A DNA stretch of 28,850 bases from a virus. The stretch lies in IMG/VR virus record IMGVR_UViG_3300027759_000328, positions 1 through 28,850 of that record, one strand, 5' to 3'. Shown here in pieces: positions 1,174 through 16,887 of this stretch (position 1 is the stretch's first letter; every line of letters begins with the position of its first letter). The position numbers were made by a program, and so were the translations under genes. The notes under the pieces were generated by a model that was given only the letters and a program-made list of their open reading frames with translations, had not been told where the DNA came from and made no database searches.

Positions 1174-1911
1174 TTACGCTGCTTTGCGTGCCTTGGTCAC
1201 GGGTTTGGTTGCGGGGGCTGCGGGTTTGGTTGCGGGGGCTGCGGGTTTGGTTGCGGTAGGCGTGGCAGGGATTGCCCACGTATCGCCCCACATGTCCACT
1301 AGCTTCGCGAGTGCAGGGTTCAGAACCAAAACTTGGTTCCAAGTTTCCTGCGTGCACGCTGCGCGAACTGCACAAAGGGCTTTGCCGATCTCGCGCTGCG
1401 CATCTGCGGGTTTGTTGATGCTGTTGGGCTTGACGATCGACAGGGTAGGCACGCTAGGCGCGGTAGGGGTCGCGGTAGGGGTCGCGGTAGGGGTCGCGGT
1501 AGGGGTCGCGGTAGGGGTCGCGGTAGCGTCTGCGGGTCGCGCTGCGGGTTTAGTGGCTTTCGCTTTCGCACGTGACGCTGCAAGGTAGGGGTTAAACGAA
1601 AACTTAGTGCCTTCGTTTATTGCTTTGCGAACAAATGACAGGTAATTATCGCGGGTCGCTGCGCTGAGGGGTTTGCCCGCCTTTGTTTTTGCAGCGTCAA
1701 AGGTCGATTGAAATTTCAGCGCGAGTGCGCACGACTGCTTCACAGTCCCCATCTTGATCTTGAGTTTGCGGATTTTATCGACCTCAACTTGGATCAATTC
1801 AGGGGCTTGCGCTACGGTAACCATTGTGGTCGCGATAACGCCAACCGCAGCAAGGGCGGCTGCGCTTGAATTTGAGGCACGTGCTGCGGATTTAATTTTT
1901 GCGTCTGACAT
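1174..1911 (-). CDS. Uncharacterised basic Ala/Pro/Thr-repeat protein, own promoter and terminator
   Basis: This 245-residue protein starts at ATG 1911 with AAGGA six bases upstream on the reverse strand. Residues about 15-110 look globular: an Ala-rich stretch, then VDKIRKLKIKMGTVKQSCA and LSAATRDNYLSFVRKAINEG. Next come a Lys/Ala linker and a Thr-Pro region of ATPT units (about 131-150, from 12-base DNA repeats). A second globular part contains cysteines (GKALCAVRAACTQETW). The tail repeats PAAPATK and ends KARKAA. I recognise no family. The Lys/Ala/Pro tails resemble flexible nucleic-acid-binding tails. The gene stands alone, with a near-consensus promoter at 1967-1996 and a strong terminator at 1127-1155. 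It looks like an independently expressed phage cassette, and its function is unknown. Confidence 0.85.
   Translation of the reverse strand: MSDAKIKSAARASNSSAAALAAVGVIATTMVTVAQAPELIQVEVDKIRKLKIKMGTVKQSCALALKFQSTFDAAKTKAGKPLSAATRDNYLSFVRKAINEGTKFSFNPYLAASRAKAKATKPAARPADATATPTATPTATPTATPTATPTAPSVPTLSIVKPNSINKPADAQREIGKALCAVRAACTQETWNQVLVLNPALAKLVDMWGDTWAIPATPTATKPAAPATKPAAPATKPVTKARKAA
1202..1256. repeat. 21-base tandem repeat inside the leftward gene
   Basis: Two full copies (1202-1222 and 1223-1243) and a 13-base partial copy (1244-1256) of a unit starting GGTTTGGTTGCGGG lie in the 3' part of 1174-1911. The unit is a multiple of three and encodes the C-terminal PAAPATK repeats. Changes in copy number would stay in frame. 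Confidence 0.85.
1460..1526. repeat. 12-base tandem repeat encoding ATPT units
   Basis: Five exact copies of GCGGTAGGGGTC run from 1460 to 1519, followed by a 7-base partial copy. On the reverse strand they encode Ala-Thr-Pro-Thr units joining the two globular parts of the leftward protein. Exact identity suggests recent slippage expansion. There are no spacers, so this is not a CRISPR array. Confidence 0.92.
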
Positions 1912-4612: not shown

Positions 4613-5440
4613 ATGATGGATGACGAGCTTCTATCCGCGCTGACATATAACCCTCGCCTTGCGGCAAAGGGCGAACAGCGGCGCGAGCGCAATGCAGAAG
4701 TTGGCGACCCGTCTGACATAGCAGAACTTGTTGCGGGTTTTCATCCAGTTATGGGACCTGCATTATCGGCAAAAGACTTAAAAGAATCATATGATAATAA
4801 CGATAAAGTAGGCATGGGTTTGGCTGGGCTAGGTATGCTTCCTATTATTGGCGGTGTAGCAAAACCAATTGCCAAGGCATTAACCAAACCGTCTTACGAA
4901 GTATTTAAAGACATCCCCAACTCAACAACTTTTTTTAAAACTGGTAGAAACCCAGATATGCCATCGTTGTACGCACATATGGACGACACAACAACAAAAG
5001 CGTTCCGTGAGCCGTCTAATATGCGCGGAACCGGTTATGCAATGCAACCTCAGTCCGGTAAAACAATTTATGTTGCGCCGCAAGATTCTAATTTTATTGC
5101 GGGCTATTTGCAGAATCCAGACATGGCAACAAAAATTGTTCCTGAGATGGACAAAAATGGCAAAGCAACCGGCAAAATGTTTGTTGAACTAACGGAAGAT
5201 TGGGGACCCAGAAAAGCAGGCGAAAAGTTATACGCAACATCGTACAAAACAAAACCGGAAGTTGGGCTTGCTCCCATGGAAATTTATAGTTCTGAAAGCA
5301 AAGTTGGCAGCACCGGAGGGGTTCATTTTGGAAGCAAAATTACAGAGGTTTTTCCAAAGCCACCGGCGGGACAATACGCACAAGGCGGCGCAATCAAAAT
5401 GCCAGATAGCTACTCTAATGGTAGCTGGAAGTTAATTTAA
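4613..5440 (+). CDS. Unknown protein between terL and portal, Gly-rich hydrophobic segment
   Basis: The protein has 275 residues from ATG 4613, or 274 from ATG 4616, which is better spaced (six bases) from AAAGG at 4605-4609. It begins with a charged helix, then a hydrophobic Gly-rich stretch at about 66-90 (GMGLAGLGMLPIIGGVAKPI). Similar segments occur before toxin domains of polymorphic toxins and in phage internal virion proteins. A globular region follows (about 95-245). The end, QYAQGGAIKMPDSYSNGSWK, carries a GG-x-x-K element like the basic proteins at 12887-16240. Its codons are visibly richer in AAA, AAT and TTT than those of terL and portal, suggesting later acquisition. I recognise no enzyme motif, and its function is unknown. 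Confidence 0.8.
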   Translation: MMDDELLSALTYNPRLAAKGEQRRERNAEVGDPSDIAELVAGFHPVMGPALSAKDLKESYDNNDKVGMGLAGLGMLPIIGGVAKPIAKALTKPSYEVFKDIPNSTTFFKTGRNPDMPSLYAHMDDTTTKAFREPSNMRGTGYAMQPQSGKTIYVAPQDSNFIAGYLQNPDMATKIVPEMDKNGKATGKMFVELTEDWGPRKAGEKLYATSYKTKPEVGLAPMEIYSSESKVGSTGGVHFGSKITEVFPKPPAGQYAQGGAIKMPDSYSNGSWKLI

Positions 5441-10491: not shown

Positions 10492-11400
10492 ATGGCTATT
10501 TCACGCGCACAACTACTCAAAGAACTTCTGCCGGGCTTAAATGCCTTGTTCGGTCTTGAGTACAAAAAGTACGGCGAACAGCACAAAGAGATTTTTGAAA
10601 CAGAATCTTCAGAGCGTTCGTTTGAAGAAGAGACTAAGTTGTCTGGCTTTAATGCCGCTCCTGTTAAGAACGAAGGTTCTGCAATGGTCTATGACAACGC
10701 ACAGGAAGCTTGGACTGCACGCTACAACCACGAAACTATTGCAATGGGTTTCTCAATCACTGAAGAAGCGATTGAAGATAACTTGTACGACTCGTTGTCG
10801 TCACGTTATACCAAAGCATTGGCTCGCGGCATGGCATACACCAAGCAAGTTAAGGCTGCAAACGTCCTTAACAACGCATTCGCTTCGGGTTATACCTACG
10901 GTGACGGTGTAGTGCTTTGCTCGACTTCACATCCGCTAGTGTCTGGCGGCGTTAACAGCAACACTCAATCTACTCCTGCTGACTTGAACGAGACTTCTTT
11001 GGAAGCCGCCGTTATTCAAATCGCCGCATGGACCGATGAGCGCGGCTTGTTAATTGCAGCCAAGCCAACCAAGTTGGTTATCCCTGCCGCACTACAGTTC
11101 GTTGCAACTCGTTTGCTCGAAACCAAACTGCGTACCGGTACAACCGACAACGACATTAACGCAATCGAAAGCAACGGTTCGATCCCCGGTGGTTACACAA
11201 TCAATAACTACCTGACCGATACCAATGCGTATTTCTTGTTGACTGACGTTCCTAACGGTCTAAAGCACTTCGTTCGTACTCCTATGCAAACAGGAATGGA
11301 CGCAGACTTTGACACTGGCAACTCACGTTACAAGGCTCGCGAGCGTTATTCGTTTGGTGTGTCTGATCCGCTTGGTATCTTCGGTTCGCCCGGAGCCTAA
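10492..11400 (+). CDS. Major capsid protein, Mu gpT-like
   Basis: This 302-residue protein forms the shell of the head. ATG 10492 has AAGGAG seven bases upstream, the strongest ribosome site in the operon. Features of the Mu gpT-type capsid family include the N-terminal helix LLKELLPGLNALFGLEYKKY and ARYNHETIAMGFSITEEAIE. Further on are CSTSHPLVSGGVNSNT, a PTKLVIPAALQFVATRLLET core, and DVPNGLKHFVRTPMQTG. The protein has no long N-terminal delta domain, consistent with a separate scaffold. A strong terminator follows it, so this is the last gene of the first head operon. Mu gpT is the closest family I recognise. Confidence 0.88.
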   Translation: MAISRAQLLKELLPGLNALFGLEYKKYGEQHKEIFETESSERSFEEETKLSGFNAAPVKNEGSAMVYDNAQEAWTARYNHETIAMGFSITEEAIEDNLYDSLSSRYTKALARGMAYTKQVKAANVLNNAFASGYTYGDGVVLCSTSHPLVSGGVNSNTQSTPADLNETSLEAAVIQIAAWTDERGLLIAAKPTKLVIPAALQFVATRLLETKLRTGTTDNDINAIESNGSIPGGYTINNYLTDTNAYFLLTDVPNGLKHFVRTPMQTGMDADFDTGNSRYKARERYSFGVSDPLGIFGSPGA

Positions 11401-12133: not shown

Positions 12134-12640
12134 ATGATGCAAACTGACGTCAAAGCCGGACACCTAAACAACACTGGATTTATGTTGTTAGGTCGTACGC
12201 GGCTCAAAGCATTGTCTATTGTTGGCACTGCCACTGCAGGTACACTTGATGTTTTTGATACAACGACTGCGCCGGTAACAACGGCAACCTACGCTCGTTC
12301 TGGCACAACCGTTACGGTAACTAGCACTGCTCACGGGTTATCAACTGGTGATGTGCGTGGCTTTGCTTTTGCAACTGCTTCTGGTTCGTCTGCAACAAAC
12401 GGTAATTACACAATTACCAAGACAGGCGCAAACACCTTTACCTTGACTGACATTAACTCCGGCACAATTGCGGCAAGTACAGCTATGTCGTACTCAACGC
12501 TTTGGTTGTGTTCGTATGATACAGGCGCAGGTGATTTGTTCGGTAACTTTGCATTGATTCCGGGCGAAGGCATTCTTGTGCAGAACGGTATCTACATGAT
12601 TATGTCTAACATTACGTCTGCGAATATTTATTATGGCTAA
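12134..12640 (+). CDS. Virion structural protein, unknown
   Basis: This 168-residue protein starts at ATG 12134 with AGGAGA five bases upstream; a second ATG follows immediately. After an N-terminal strand-rich part (GFMLLGRTRLKALSIVGTAT) there is an inserted domain. It has a recurring phage pattern, roughly TATYARSGTTVTVTSTAHGL, then NGNYTITKTGANTFTLTDIN. This is a small beta domain found within many structural proteins. A very similar pattern (AAHG-type, NTYTI) appears in the right-edge protein at 28112. The C-terminal part is LFGNFALIPGEGILVQNGIY. It is probably a virion surface or adaptor component. It overlaps the next gene by eight bases. Confidence 0.78.
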   Translation: MMQTDVKAGHLNNTGFMLLGRTRLKALSIVGTATAGTLDVFDTTTAPVTTATYARSGTTVTVTSTAHGLSTGDVRGFAFATASGSSATNGNYTITKTGANTFTLTDINSGTIAASTAMSYSTLWLCSYDTGAGDLFGNFALIPGEGILVQNGIYMIMSNITSANIYYG

Positions 12641-12887
12641 GAAAACCCCCTCCCTTGCTATTGGTCGTGGTGAAAAGCTACCGGTCAAACAAGGGGCGGG
12701 TCTTACTGCCAAAGGTCGTGCCAAGTACAACGCAGCAACCGGATCAAACTTGAAGGCTCCACAGCCTGAAGGTGGTCCACGCAAGAAGTCGTTTTGTGCA
12801 AGGATGAGCGGTATGCCCGGACCGATGAAAGATGAGAAAGGCAGACCTACTCGTAAAGCAGCAAGTCTCAAACGGTGGAAATGCTGA
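12633..12887 (+). CDS. Small basic phage protein, RKSFCARMSG-type
   Basis: This 84-residue, strongly basic protein starts at ATG 12633, overlapping the previous stop by eight bases. It has the pieces GAGLTAKGRAKYNAATGSNL and RKKSFCARMSGMPGPMKDEK, and ends KAASLKRWKC. This belongs to a recurrent family of small basic proteins in environmental phages; from memory it matches a domain of unknown function (possibly DUF6321), not verified. Two cysteines and many Lys/Arg residues suggest nucleic-acid contact or packing inside the head. It opens a run of small basic genes. Function is unknown. Confidence 0.82.
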   Translation: MAKKTPSLAIGRGEKLPVKQGAGLTAKGRAKYNAATGSNLKAPQPEGGPRKKSFCARMSGMPGPMKDEKGRPTRKAASLKRWKC

Positions 12888-13309
12888 TGCCCAGCACATC
12901 TAAGAAACAGCATAATTTTATGTCGGCAGTCGCGCACAACCCTGCGTTTGCCAAGAAAGTTGGTGTATCTCAATCTGTGGGTAAAGACTTCAACACTGCC
13001 GATAAAGGCAAAACATTTAGGGAAGGTGGCGCTATGAAAGACATGAAAATGGACAAGGCTCAAGACAAAGCTATGGTCAAAAAAGCCGTAGGCATGCACG
13101 ACAAACAAATGCACGGTGGCAAGAAGACCGATATGGCTGCGCTCAAGAAAGGCGGCATGCCAATGGTTATGAAAGACGGTAAGAAAATGCCTGCTTTCGC
13201 TGCTAAGAAAGGCGGCATGACCAAGATGGCAAAGGGTGGCGGCGTTGAGTCTAAGGGTAAAACCGAAGGCAAGATGATTAAAATGAAGTCTGGCGGCAAA
13301 GCCTGCTAA
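12887..13309 (+). CDS. Small basic phage protein with KKGGM repeats
   Basis: This 140-residue protein starts at ATG 12887, whose A is the last base of the preceding TGA stop. An in-frame ATG four codons earlier lies inside the upstream gene and is less likely. The N-terminal domain PSTSKKQHNFMSAVAHNPAF...VGVSQSVGKDF is one I recognise from many environmental phages, with no known function. The rest is Lys, Met and Gly rich with repeated KKGGM elements, ending in a GG-x-V/KGKTEGK-type tail. Extreme Lys and Met content and no hydrophobic core suggest a flexible, nucleic-acid-binding or head-internal protein. Confidence 0.82.
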   Translation: MPSTSKKQHNFMSAVAHNPAFAKKVGVSQSVGKDFNTADKGKTFREGGAMKDMKMDKAQDKAMVKKAVGMHDKQMHGGKKTDMAALKKGGMPMVMKDGKKMPAFAAKKGGMTKMAKGGGVESKGKTEGKMIKMKSGGKAC

Positions 13310-13318
13310 GGAACCGAC

Positions 13319-13582
13319 ATGGCAATGATTCCTCAAGTTGAAGATGCAGATACTCTTGTCTCGCCCGTCATGGCTAAAGGCAGGAAAGCGCCAATGAAAA
13401 TGAAAACCCCCGGCATGGGTACGATGATGGGTGCGCCTAAGTACAAGGGTGTCCCCGCAATGGGTAAGATCGAACCCGGCTCGACTCCGTTTGAATCGGG
13501 TGGCATGGCAAAGGGTGGCTCTGTTTCTAAGCGTGCAGATGGTTGCTGCATCAAAGGCAAAACTAAAGGCAAAATGCTATGA
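13319..13582 (+). CDS. Small basic phage protein with KRADG-KGKTKG tail
   Basis: This 87-residue protein starts at ATG 13319 with AAGGA about six bases upstream. It is rich in Met, Gly, Pro and Lys with little predicted structure. The C-terminal 25 residues carry FESGGMAKGGSVSKRADG, a CC pair, then KGKTKGKML. The same tail pattern recurs in the next gene (KRGDG...RGKTKGRFV), in 12887-13309, and at the N-terminus of the 59-residue protein at 15777. It overlaps the next gene by four bases. The tail looks like a shared targeting or binding tag; function is unknown. Confidence 0.8.
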   Translation: MAMIPQVEDADTLVSPVMAKGRKAPMKMKTPGMGTMMGAPKYKGVPAMGKIEPGSTPFESGGMAKGGSVSKRADGCCIKGKTKGKML

Positions 13583-14232
13583 AGAAACGCAAATTTAAAA
13601 CGGGCGGAGAGTTTGAACTTGACGCTGATGCCTTAGCTTCTGGCTTGCGTATGGGTAAAAACGAGCGCATTACCGATGCTGACCGTGAAGCGGGTATCGC
13701 CGCCGTAGAACGCGCCGTAAATGCGGCTAAAGGCATGTCAGACGCAGAGGCTACTCTGCTGATGAAGAATGACCTACTGCCCGCAGACATGCAGACTCCA
13801 GCAGGTCAAGCAGAATCTATTCCTGTACCACGTCCTCGCGCAATTGTGGGTCGTTCGTTGCCTGCTCCTCGCGCCGCTGCACCCAACCTTGGCAATCAAA
13901 ACGACTACAGCATGAACGAAATGGAAGGGTCGGGCAGAGGTTCTGAGCCTGCCCCACGCGCTCGTGCAGGGGCAACCCCGCGCCCTGTTCCCGCACAAAA
14001 TCCAACACTGCCTAACGTTACGCCACGCGTTCGTAATATCCCAAGCTCTCCTGAGGCATCGCCGGGGATGACTGCAAGACCAAGTGAGAGTATGCGTTTG
14101 CGTAGGGAAAAAGAAAGACTACGCCGCGAGCGTCCGTTAGAAGCCATGCCAATGAAAAAAGGCGGCGCAGTCAAAGCCAAGCGCGGTGACGGTATTGCTC
14201 AACGTGGCAAGACTAAAGGTCGATTTGTATGA
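13579..14232 (+). CDS. Proline/Arg-rich protein with KRGDG-RGKTKG tail
   Basis: This 217-residue protein starts at ATG 13579 in an ATGA overlap with the previous gene. Residues about 15-75 form a helical domain (LDADALASGLRMGKNERITD, AVERAVNAAKGMSDAEATLL). The middle (about 75-175) is disordered and rich in Pro, Ala and Arg. A basic helix RLRREKERLRRERP precedes a tail with MKKGGAVKAKRGDG and RGKTKGRFV. The end matches the neighbouring small basic proteins closely. It probably joins a folded part to a shared tail through a flexible linker. I recognise no family; a minor virion or scaffold-like role is possible. Confidence 0.8.
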   Translation: MKKRKFKTGGEFELDADALASGLRMGKNERITDADREAGIAAVERAVNAAKGMSDAEATLLMKNDLLPADMQTPAGQAESIPVPRPRAIVGRSLPAPRAAAPNLGNQNDYSMNEMEGSGRGSEPAPRARAGATPRPVPAQNPTLPNVTPRVRNIPSSPEASPGMTARPSESMRLRREKERLRRERPLEAMPMKKGGAVKAKRGDGIAQRGKTKGRFV

Positions 14233-14513
14233 GAGCCTCTCGCGGGATGGGGGCAATCCTCCCATCTAAGATGCCAAAGGGCAAAACGATGCGCCGCAAG
14301 GATGGCGACAAGTTTCAGATGTTTGCTGAAGGCGGTGAGGTTAAGTCTAAAGTTAATGAGTCGGGCAACTACACCAAACCAGAATTGCGTAAACGTATTT
14401 TTAACAGCGTAAAAGCTGCGGCGGTTCAAGGTACAGGCGCGGGGCAATGGTCAGCCAGAAAAGCACAATTGATGGCTAAACGCTATAAAGCCGCAGGTGG
14501 TGGATATAAATGA
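14229..14513 (+). CDS. Small basic phage protein, YTKPELRKRI/QWSARKAQ type
   Basis: This 94-residue protein starts at ATG 14229 in an ATGA overlap. The N-terminal third is Lys/Met-rich with MFAEGGEVKSK, the GG-x-V-K element shared with neighbours. The C-terminal domain NYTKPELRKRIFNSVKAAAV, then GAGQWSARKAQLMAKRYKAA, is a recognisable small domain from phage and environmental sequences. The last residues are GGGYK. Its function is not known to me. The basic helix suggests DNA binding. It overlaps the next gene by four bases, so translation is probably coupled along the run. Confidence 0.82.
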   Translation: MRASRGMGAILPSKMPKGKTMRRKDGDKFQMFAEGGEVKSKVNESGNYTKPELRKRIFNSVKAAAVQGTGAGQWSARKAQLMAKRYKAAGGGYK

Positions 14514-14752
14514 GCAGCCTAGCAAAACCGCAGCAGTCTTTAAAAGCTTGGGGTGACCAGAAATGGACAACTAAGTCAGGCAAGAAATCGTCTGAGACAG
14601 GTGAACGGTATTTGCCCAAGAAAGCTATTGAGTCTCTTAGCCCTGCGGAGTACGCAGCCACAACTAAAGCAAAACGTGCAGGTAAGGCAGCAGGTAAACA
14701 GTTTGTCGCCCAGCCTAAAAAGATTGCTAAGAAAACATCGGGATTTAGATAA
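14510..14752 (+). CDS. Small basic phage protein, KKSSETGERYLP type
   Basis: This 80-residue basic protein starts at ATG 14510 in an ATGA overlap. The pattern is SLKAWGDQKWTTKSGKKSSE, then RYLPKKAIESLSPAEYAATT and GKQFVAQPKKIAKKTS. I know it from many large and environmental phages, where it is annotated as a domain of unknown function (from memory DUF5872, not verified). The conserved Trp, Tyr-Leu-Pro and a closing KKIAKKT basic helix are intact, so it is full length. It overlaps the adaptor gene by a single base (TAATG). It may bind DNA or RNA; no role is established here. Confidence 0.83.
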   Translation: MSSLAKPQQSLKAWGDQKWTTKSGKKSSETGERYLPKKAIESLSPAEYAATTKAKRAGKAAGKQFVAQPKKIAKKTSGFR

Positions 14753-15459
14753 TGGCTGTTTCTGGAACCACCGCGTTTAACCTAGACTTCGCTGAACTGG
14801 CAGAAGAGGCGTTTGAACGTGCCGGTAAAGAAATGCGTACAGGTTACGACCTACGCACAGCTACGCGATCCATGAACTTGATGACCATTGAGTTCCAAAA
14901 CCGTGGCATCAACATGTGGACAATTGATGAGGGTACAGTCAACCTGATTCAAGGGCAAGCCGAATACGACTTACCGGCGGATACCATTGATTTGATGGAT
15001 CAGGTTATCAGAACGGGTTCAGGCAATTACTCCACGCAATCTGATTTAACTATATCTCGTATTAGCGTATCGACCTACGCCACAATCCCTAACAAGTTAG
15101 CACAAGGTCGCCCCATTCAAGTGTGGGTGCGCAGACTACGGGATAACCCTAAGATTGTTGTATGGCCTGTTCCCGATCAAGGCACAGCGCCCGCCCCTTA
15201 TTACATTTTTAAATACTGGCGGATGCGCCGTATTGATGACGCAGGTACGGGCGCAAATACTCAGGATGCAAACTTTAGATTCTTGCCAGCAATTGCAGCG
15301 GGACTAGCCTATTACGTTGCCATGAAATTTCCTGACCTTGCACCGCGCATGCAAATGCTTAAACAAGAGTATGAGTTTCAGTTTGACTTGGCGGCTCAAG
15401 AAGATCGCGAGAAGGCTTCAGTACGGTTTGTGCCGCGCATTGTGGGCATTCGGAGCTAG
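14752..15459 (+). CDS. Head-tail adaptor-like protein
   Basis: This 235-residue protein starts at ATG 14752 in a TAATG overlap. It has an N-terminal helical part (FAELAEEAFERAGKEMRTGY, TATRSMNLMTIEFQNRGINM). A beta region (NLIQGQAEYDLPADTIDLMD) and a C-terminal helical part (FRFLPAIAAGLAYYVAMKFP, MLKQEYEFQFDLAAQEDREK) follow. The same helical-bundle layout with a beta insertion is found in podovirus adaptor or tail tubular A-like proteins (P22 gp4, T7 gp11), which attach under the portal. Length fits. The assignment is by pattern and position. It is interleaved with the small basic genes, which suggests they act at the same assembly stage. Confidence 0.68.
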   Translation: MAVSGTTAFNLDFAELAEEAFERAGKEMRTGYDLRTATRSMNLMTIEFQNRGINMWTIDEGTVNLIQGQAEYDLPADTIDLMDQVIRTGSGNYSTQSDLTISRISVSTYATIPNKLAQGRPIQVWVRRLRDNPKIVVWPVPDQGTAPAPYYIFKYWRMRRIDDAGTGANTQDANFRFLPAIAAGLAYYVAMKFPDLAPRMQMLKQEYEFQFDLAAQEDREKASVRFVPRIVGIRS

Positions 15460-15461
15460 TC

Positions 15462-15767
15462 GTGGGTAATAAGTTTGCATCTGATAGTAAAGCAATTGCA
15501 GAGTGTGATGTTTGCGGCTTTCGGTATAAACTACGGACATTACGTTACCTGATTGTTAAGACTAAAACCACCAATGTTAAGGCTTGTAATGAATGTTGGA
15601 ATCCCGATCAGCCGCAGCTTCAACTTGGTATGTATCCCGTTGATGATCCTCAAGCCATTCGCAATCCAAGACCAGACTTTACGGGATACCCACAGAGTCG
15701 GTCACAGGTTATAGAAGCAGTAGGCATGACAACGACTTCATTTGTTGGGCAAGTTACAATTTCTTAG
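15462..15767 (+). CDS. Small zinc-ribbon virion-region protein
   Basis: This 101-residue protein starts at GTG 15462, with GGAG six bases upstream. Cysteines at 15, 18, 42 and 45 form two CxxC pairs (CDVC and CNEC) about 24 residues apart, a likely zinc ribbon. The end has FTGYPQSRSQVIEAVG. I associate a related short protein (DRCGF...PKHPQL type) with the adaptor and tail genes of environmental podophages, often without the second CxxC. It may be a structural metal-stabilised connector component. Enzyme function is unlikely given its size. It lies between two adaptor-like genes. Confidence 0.78.
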   Translation: MGNKFASDSKAIAECDVCGFRYKLRTLRYLIVKTKTTNVKACNECWNPDQPQLQLGMYPVDDPQAIRNPRPDFTGYPQSRSQVIEAVGMTTTSFVGQVTIS

Positions 15768-15776
15768 GAGCTTAAA

Positions 15777-15956
15777 ATGGCTTATAAACGTGGCGCTGAT
15801 GGCGTAGCAAAAAAAGGTAAGACGGACGTTAAAAACTTAGGCACTGTTGATGCTAAAGTCTTGGGCATGAAAGGCGGCAAAAAGTCTGCTGGCGTTTCAT
15901 CTGAAGCAATGAAATCAATGGGTCGCAATATGGCTCGCTGTGTTAATCAGGGGTAA
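15777..15956 (+). CDS. 59-residue basic protein with KRGADG-KKGKT start
   Basis: The frame reads ATG 15777 to TAA 15956, with GGAG six bases upstream overlapping the previous stop. The next gene begins three bases later. The protein begins MAYKRGADGVAKKGKTDVKN, matching the C-terminal tails of the proteins ending at 13582 and 14232. It continues with a Gly/Lys stretch (GMKGGKKSAG) and a helix ending RNMARCVNQG. The good ribosome site, tight packing and shared motif make this a real gene despite its size. It probably acts with the other small basic proteins. Function is unknown. Confidence 0.82.
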   Translation: MAYKRGADGVAKKGKTDVKNLGTVDAKVLGMKGGKKSAGVSSEAMKSMGRNMARCVNQG

Positions 15957-15958
15957 TC

Positions 15959-16240
15959 ATGGCTAAATTTAGTCAGAAAATGATGGGTAAAGAAGTGGGC
16001 GCGGCTTCTGTTTACGCTGAACCCCACACCATGCGTGGCGGCAAGATTAACCCACAGCAAGCTGTGAGTGGCTCGGTTGATCCCAACACGTTATCGGCAA
16101 AAGACATGAGATGCGGTATGCCTGCACCTCGCGTCAGCTCAGGCGATCCCGGACGCAATGACGTAAAGACTAGCGGCATTGTCGTGCGTGGCGGTAAAGC
16201 GCAGACTAAAGGCAAAATGGCTAGAGGTCCGATGGCATGA
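15959..16240 (+). CDS. Small basic phage protein ending TKGKMARGPMA
   Basis: This 93-residue protein starts at ATG 15959, three bases after the previous stop. The pieces are KFSQKMMGKEVGAASVYAEP, a central Pro/Gly/Ser part with one cysteine (DMRCGMPAP), and a C-terminal tail VRGGKAQTKGKMARGPMA. That tail again combines a GG element with a TKGK motif, as in the other small proteins here. I have seen very similar endings in pelagic and freshwater phage proteins of unknown function. Overlap of four bases (ATGA) with the next adaptor-like gene suggests coupled translation and equal supply. Confidence 0.82.
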   Translation: MAKFSQKMMGKEVGAASVYAEPHTMRGGKINPQQAVSGSVDPNTLSAKDMRCGMPAPRVSSGDPGRNDVKTSGIVVRGGKAQTKGKMARGPMA

Positions 16241-16887
16241 ACTATGCGGAACTAACAGCCAATATTCAAGACATTTGCGAGAACTCGTTTACCGCAGATG
16301 AATTGGCTATGTTCACGCAGCAAGCCGAACAGAAGATTTACAACACTGTTCAGATTTCAAACCTTCGCAAAAACGTTACTGGCACACTTACCACTAACAA
16401 CAAATACCTTTCTGCACCGGGCGATTTCTTGTCTGTGTACTCACTGGCTGTGATTAAAACTGATGGCTCGTATGAGTTTTTGCTTAACAAAGACGTTAAC
16501 TTTATTCGCCAAGCGTACCCCACGCCAACAAGCACAGGAACCCCCAAGTATTACGCCATCTTCGGACCGAACAGTAGCTCGGTGACCGATCTAAGCCTGA
16601 TTCTTGGACCCACGCCAGATGCAACGTATTCGGTGGAGCTTCACTATTTTTACTACCCTGAGTCAATTGTGACTGCGAGTACGTCTTGGCTAGGCGACAA
16701 CTTTGATTCGGCGTTACTAAACGGTGCGTTGATTGAAGCTCTGCGATTTATGAAAGGCGAGCCTGAGACTACCGCTGTGTACGACAAGTTGTACCTACAA
16801 TCCATCATGCTGCTCAAGAACTTGGGTGATGGCAAACAGCGTCAAGATGCGTACAGGTCGGGTCAATTCCGTCAGGATGTGACATGA
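16237..16887 (+). CDS. Second adaptor or tail connector-like protein
   Basis: This 216-residue protein starts at ATG 16237 in an ATGA overlap. An N-terminal helical part (ELTANIQDICENSFTADELA, QQAEQKIYNTVQISNLRKNV) leads to a beta middle (TTNNKYLSAPGDFLSVYSLA, DLSLILGPTPDATYSVELHY). A C-terminal helical part follows (LLNGALIEALRFMKGEPETT, MLLKNLGDGKQRQDAYRSGQ). The helix-beta-helix order is that of head-tail adaptors. This sequence type is common in environmental podophages, where it is called a tail or adaptor protein. Whether it binds the portal or sits further down the tail cannot be told from sequence. It overlaps the next gene by four bases. Confidence 0.68.
   Translation: MNYAELTANIQDICENSFTADELAMFTQQAEQKIYNTVQISNLRKNVTGTLTTNNKYLSAPGDFLSVYSLAVIKTDGSYEFLLNKDVNFIRQAYPTPTSTGTPKYYAIFGPNSSSVTDLSLILGPTPDATYSVELHYFYYPESIVTASTSWLGDNFDSALLNGALIEALRFMKGEPETTAVYDKLYLQSIMLLKNLGDGKQRQDAYRSGQFRQDVT

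What the first reader, a model, noticed from the sequence alone, without database searches (positions are those of the whole stretch)
12887..16240. Family of small basic proteins sharing a KR-DG-KGKT(K)G and GG-x-V-K tag
Tails KRADG..KGKTKGKML (ends 13582) and KRGDG..RGKTKGRFV (ends 14232) match the N-terminus KRGADG..KKGKT of the 59-residue protein at 15777. Weaker versions end the proteins at 13309 (KGKTEGK) and 16240 (TKGKMARGPMA). GG-x-V/I-K elements recur at 14229 and even in 4613-5440. Folds before the tags differ, so the tag itself looks like the conserved unit. It could be a capsid-targeting signal, a protease or scaffold handle, or a DNA-packing tail for internal head proteins, and may be a new phage protein-sorting system.
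Basis: partly seen in the sequence, partly recalled or inferred. Interest (0 to 1): 0.72.

Follow-up and report, generated by a model that had tools for sequence, protein, structure and literature searches.

The report
Shared C-terminal tag on phage proteins
A group of mostly uncultivated short-tailed phages makes many unrelated, floppy, basic small proteins that all end in the same roughly 17-residue peptide; the peptide is conserved while the rest of each protein is swapped out, which looks like a sorting or anchoring tag, although what it does has not been shown.

Summary
A tag-only profile built without close relatives finds it in the window at 13529-13579 (E 2.6e-14), 14179-14229 (7.4e-10) and at the N-terminus of the 15777 protein (3.7e-4); the copy near 13309 is a worn version of a tag its orthologues carry in full. 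The GG-x-V-K elements are not the tag, 16240 is a separate conserved tail, and 4613-5440 ends in a different tag (MPxxYSxGxWKLI). In virus contigs I collected 285 distinct tagged proteins; 214 stop exactly three residues after GKTKG. Their bodies form 140 sequence clusters (117 singletons), yet all 120 pattern-selected loci belong to this phage group, and 28/28 tags in 16 long records lie between capsid and adaptor genes. Between phages with 75-85% identical adaptors, 3% of tagged bodies but about 100% of flanking genes have a detectable homologue. Synonymous sites vary nearly freely, so selection acts on the peptide. Bodies are mostly basic and predicted disordered, so 'folds differ' is wrong. 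The logic resembles T4 capsid-targeting sequences, at the other end of the protein and with no protease identified. Virion location, partner and function are untested.

The parts
13319..13582 (+). 87-aa tagged protein; tag KRADGCCIKGKTKGKML at 13529-13579
   Evidence: tag HMM E 2.6e-14, 46.7 bits; no PHROG or Pfam match for the body
13579..14232 (+). 217-aa tagged protein; tag KRGDGIAQRGKTKGRFV at 14179-14229; body Pro/Arg-rich, no confident fold
   Evidence: tag HMM E 7.4e-10; AlphaFold2 mean pLDDT 56, pTM 0.19
12887..13309 (+). 140-aa protein: N-terminal module MPSTSKKQHNFMSAVAHNPAFAKK (12887-13018) and a degenerate tag ESKGKTEGKM...GGKAC (from 13250)
   Evidence: tag HMM sequence E 0.0057; orthologues carry the full tag with extension; N-terminal module matches phrog_16759 at 3.6e-21
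15777..15956 (+). 59-aa protein with the motif KRGADGVAKKGKT at its N-terminus (15786-15824), conserved in its family as MA[FY]..[SG]ADG[IV]AKKGKT
   Evidence: tag HMM E 3.7e-4; 59 distinct homologues listed
10492..11400 (+). major capsid protein gene: upstream border of the interval that holds the tagged genes
   Evidence: phrog_371 1e-20; PF25209 1.1e-11 and PF10124 2.6e-7
14752..15459 (+). adaptor-like protein gene: downstream border of the interval
   Evidence: PF24175 SU10_adaptor 1.4e-10
4613..5440 (+). 275-aa protein with a different C-terminal tag, KMPDSYSNGSWKLI (MPDSYSNGSWKLI at 5399-5437), between terminase and portal
   Evidence: 98 distinct proteins end in MPxxYSxGxWKLI exactly at the last residue; body confidently folded around residues 90-250

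Best explanation
The peptide KR[AG]DG[CI]A.[KR]GKT[KR]G[RK][MFI][VIL]-COOH, usually behind a GG linker, is a short docking motif. From the interval between the capsid and adaptor genes the phage makes one to several small, basic, largely disordered proteins. Their shared C-terminus docks on one conserved component of the assembling head (scaffold, capsid interior, portal or adaptor), so that different bodies are brought to the same place, most likely the inside of the head or the neck, where they would accompany the DNA and perhaps be ejected with it. Shown: the motif, its fixed C-terminal position, its conservation against body turnover, peptide-level selection, restriction to one phage group, gene position, and basic, disordered-looking bodies. 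Inferred: docking, the partner, virion location and ejection.
For: 285 distinct tagged proteins, 214 ending exactly 3 residues after GKTKG; 140 body clusters with 117 singletons; body turnover against near-100% detectable flanks, bimodal at adaptor identity of 95% or more; diverse codons at invariant residues; 28/28 tags between capsid and adaptor genes in 16 long records; all 120 pattern-selected loci in one phage group; bodies 78% pI above 9 and 78% on the disordered side of a charge-hydropathy plot; tags within a genome slightly more alike than permuted (78.6% vs 75.9%, 0 of 500 permutations), as a shared partner would give. The N-terminal module of one tagged family matches PHROGs named virion structural protein. 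T4 packages small basic proteins with unconserved bodies through a short shared peptide (PMC9026906).
Against: No proteomics, no partner, no structure of the tag (predicted unstructured). Bodies have no recognisable enzymatic domain, so it is unclear what would be worth delivering. Several cultured relatives examined (HTVC027P, HTVC023P, CRP-902, DSL-LC04) show no tag in the stretches searched, so the tag is not essential to this kind of head. Gene conversion could explain part of the within-genome similarity.
Confidence: 0.45

Rival explanations
1. The tag is the working part, not an address: a basic Gly/Lys peptide that binds DNA, RNA or phosphate, and the bodies are disposable spacers that vary freely.
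For: The tag is rich in Lys, Arg and Gly; bodies are disordered and unconserved, as spacers would be; the motif happens to fit GxxxxGK[ST].
Against: A merely basic peptide would not need fixed D, T and C/I-A positions and a fixed end; no P-loop fold around it.
Confidence: 0.25
2. The tagged proteins are simply one rapidly evolving, duplicating family with a conserved end and no sorting role; the bodies only look unrelated because disordered sequence diverges quickly.
For: Neighbouring tandem tagged genes, disordered bodies; some bodies remain recognisably related (clusters of 39, 22 and 14).
Against: In near-identical phages bodies are mostly near-identical or without counterpart, and other equally small basic disordered genes alongside (14229 family) stay recognisable. 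Origin by duplication does not exclude a docking role.
Confidence: 0.18
3. The C-terminus is a processing or stability signal (cut by a phage protease or read by a host protease).
For: Fixed distance from the C-terminus and hydrophobic last residues.
Against: No prohead protease recognised among the head genes; a class of tags is followed by 10-13 more residues and one family has the motif at its N-terminus, which does not suit an end-reading protease.
Confidence: 0.08
4. The conserved thing is a DNA or RNA element (recombination hot spot, packaging or regulatory site) that happens to be translated.
For: It recurs in neighbouring genes and could help bodies recombine.
Against: Invariant residues use many codons; fourfold sites differ in 54% (within locus) to 60% (between loci) of comparisons against about 65-74% expected from codon usage.
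Confidence: 0.02

Closest known systems
[quoted passage not shown]
   Same: A short shared terminal peptide on small basic proteins whose bodies are not conserved among related phages (PMC9026906).
   Different: T4 CTS are N-terminal, 10-19 residues and removed by the gp21 protease; here the peptide is C-terminal, unrelated in sequence and no protease was recognised. Packaging has been shown for T4, not here.
Encapsulin cargo-loading peptides (from general knowledge)
   Same: Short C-terminal peptides behind flexible linkers that dock unrelated proteins on a shell of the same capsid fold.
   Different: Different sequence, cargo there is folded enzyme; here mostly disordered small basic proteins inside a complete tailed phage. 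No docking shown.
Polyvalent proteins packaged with phage DNA (PMC5512222)
   Same: Predicted to be packed into heads of terminase-portal phages and injected; one protein with the second tag (L228) matches the metallopeptidase family DUF6782.
   Different: Those are large multidomain enzymes; the KRADG-GKTKG proteins have no recognised domain.
Planktothrix phage Pag-Yong1, Pelagibacter phages HTVC023P/HTVC027P, Roseobacter CRP-902, phage DSL-LC04
   Same: Same head module (capsid 58-72% identical, GroES, adaptor order).
   Different: Of those examined only Pag-Yong1 carries the tag (GRDGCAKRGRTKGRFI on a 308-aa protein, E 1.7e-5).

Membership tests
T4-type capsid targeting sequence | short peptide shared by several otherwise unlike proteins of one phage | tested here: met
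T4-type capsid targeting sequence | small basic proteins with bodies not conserved among relatives | tested here: met
T4-type capsid targeting sequence | located at the N-terminus | tested here: not met
   C-terminal in 280 of 285 tagged proteins; only the 15777 family has the motif at the N-terminus
T4-type capsid targeting sequence | cleaved by a prohead protease encoded in the head module | tested here: inconclusive
   no protease recognised among head genes by Pfam or PHROGs; three head-module genes are of unknown function
T4-type capsid targeting sequence | directs the protein into the head | not testable with these tools
   needs proteomics or a reporter
Encapsulin-type cargo-loading peptide | C-terminal peptide that binds the shell interior | not testable with these tools
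   position met; binding untested
P-loop (Walker A) NTPase | GxxxxGK[ST] within a strand-loop-helix fold | tested here: not met
   sequence pattern present, but only three residues follow GKTKG in most proteins and the tag is predicted unstructured

The most novel reading that the evidence does not exclude
A dedicated C-terminal protein-sorting code in tailed phages: one address (KRADG....GKTKG) for swappable basic disordered proteins made between capsid and adaptor genes, and a second (MPxxYSxGxWKLI) for folded proteins made mostly between terminase and portal, each recognised by a different part of the assembling particle.
Probability: 0.28. Interest if true: 0.82.

Novelty: new variant of a known kind. 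Interest (0 to 1): 0.62.

Why it matters
If the peptide is a head-targeting address, it would be a C-terminal counterpart of the T4 capsid targeting sequence in a widespread, mostly uncultivated phage group; it would predict which of these phages' many unknown small proteins enter virions, and offer a small tag for loading proteins into phage capsids. None of six tag strings searched occurs in 5.39 million open-access papers; subscription journals and preprints were not searched.

Tried and rejected
DNA- or RNA-level element: rejected by codon diversity. Chance: in 84,980 bacterial and archaeal genomes (257 Gb) a slightly stricter pattern hit 3 places, none of them ordinary cellular sequence: L205 (a phage cassette), L206 (a close relative of the window binned with a gammaproteobacterium) and L207. 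Acyltransferase cargo (PF01757, on L207): rejected, the domain stops and the GC content changes where the tag begins, so it looks like an assembly chimera. tblastn with a 28-aa consensus tag against 50,697 phage records found nothing although Pag-Yong1 has one: short queries are insensitive there, so that negative is weak. Similar short searches with the 15959 tail and an HTVC023P tail gave nothing useful. PDB fold search with the 4613 body: nothing at E<=0.001. Strong within-genome co-variation of tag variants (D to N): only isolated cases.

Full report
What the window is. The window is a 28,850-base virus record from IMG/VR. It carries a large terminase (3059), portal (5450), GroES (8039), a scaffold-like acidic protein (8430), a major capsid protein (10492) and two genes that match the SU10 adaptor family (14752 and 16237). 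Annotated relatives are phages of about 50-65 kb such as HTVC023P, HTVC027P, CRP-902, DSL-LC04 and Planktothrix Pag-Yong1.

Checking the observation. I built a profile of the tag alone from 171 tags, leaving out loci whose adaptor is 85% or more identical to the window's, and searched every stop-to-stop frame of the window. It finds 13319-13582 (E 2.6e-14), 13579-14232 (7.4e-10), the N-terminus of 15777 (3.7e-4) and, weakly, 12887-13309 (0.0057). The best score in 20 shuffled windows was 9.6 bits. The weak one is supported by homology: its orthologues, recognised by the N-terminal MPSTSKKQHNFM module, often end in the full tag followed by TM[VI]xMxxGGxxC. 15959-16240, 14229 and 4613 do not carry this tag.

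How widespread and how conserved. All 120 pattern-selected loci belong to the window's phage group: 117 have a homologue of a core head or tail gene and the other three have homologues of the cassette genes. From all loci I took 285 distinct tagged proteins; 214 end exactly three residues after GKTKG and 66 have a short extension. Columns not fixed by the search are strongly conserved as well, and in loci chosen by the adaptor alone 78 of 80 proteins ending in GKTKG plus three residues have R.DG at the right spacing. Loci that fail the strict pattern often carry near variants such as SSANGIAQRGKTRGKMC.

The tag stays, the body goes. With the end removed, 275 bodies form 140 sequence clusters, 117 of them singletons. 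Between phages with adaptors 85-95% identical, 36% of tagged bodies have a detectable homologue in the partner; at 75-85%, 3%; flanking genes, some equally small, are detected in essentially all pairs. At 95% or more, bodies are mostly near-identical (median 96%) or have no counterpart (71 of 345), which points to replacement or gain and loss, not only drift. Tags on unrelated bodies are 75.8% identical. Codon choice at invariant residues is diverse, so the peptide and not the DNA is conserved.

Where and what. In 16 long records all 28 tags lie between the capsid and adaptor genes and on the same strand. Bodies are short (median 88 aa), 78% have pI above 9 and 78% fall on the disordered side of a charge-hydropathy plot; 90 representatives gave no credible Pfam domain (the one strong match is the L207 chimera), and the largest window example has no confident fold.

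A second tag. The gene at 4613-5440 ends in MPDSYSNGSWKLI. 98 distinct proteins end in MPxxYSxGxWKLI, always at the very last residue, on 10 body clusters, behind the same kind of GG linker. Where both genes could be located, 92 of 94 lie between terminase and portal; others sit among tail genes. The window's body is confidently folded but unlike solved structures at E<=0.001. The two tags sit on different kinds of protein at different loci.

Mechanism. I favour a docking peptide that brings interchangeable, basic, disordered proteins to one site of the assembling head or neck, by analogy with T4 internal proteins, where a short shared peptide packages small basic proteins with non-conserved bodies (PMC9026906). 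The slightly higher similarity of tags within a genome fits a shared partner, but gene conversion could contribute. Virion presence, partner, cleavage and ejection are not shown. The main alternative is that the tag is itself the active, nucleic-acid-binding part.

Novelty. None of six tag strings occurs in 5.39 million open-access papers. It is not a T4 CTS (wrong terminus, no protease found), but works by the same logic if the inference holds.

Noticed in passing
window 5399-5437 (gene 4613-5440); loci L208-L286: A second conserved C-terminal tag, GG[SA]VKMPxxYSxG[NS]WKLI, on 10 clusters of bodies, mostly between terminase and portal, some among tail genes.
   Followed up: partly
window 12887-13018: The N-terminal module MPSTSKKQHNFMSAVAHNPAFAKKVGV is 76% identical over 42 residues to PHIKZ165.1 of jumbo phage phiKZ and also begins an 844-aa protein of GAP32 and a 263-aa 'virion structural protein' of PBECO4: possibly an N-terminal module shared by very different phages.
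   Followed up: partly
window 12633-12887: DUF6321 protein (E 1.7e-23); the same domain forms the C-terminal end of several much longer phage proteins in PHROGs.
   Followed up: no
window 15959-16240: Family with a conserved tail [IV][RK]G[TAG]GAATKG.M.RGPMA, reminiscent of but not matched by the tag profile.
   Followed up: partly
window 14752-15459 and 16237-16887: Two genes of the same genome both match the SU10 adaptor family (1.4e-10 and 1.9e-21), with a CxxC...CxxC zinc-ribbon-like protein (15462) between them.
   Followed up: no
L205 (Chitinophagales MAG), L206 (Gammaproteobacteria MAG), L207 (Patulibacter MAG): Phage sequence binned with bacterial genomes; L206 is a close relative of the window and L207 joins an acyltransferase gene to a tag at a GC break near the contig end.
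   Followed up: yes
window 1174-1911, minus strand: 245-aa protein with a run of TPTA repeats and AAPATKP repeats near its end.
   Followed up: no
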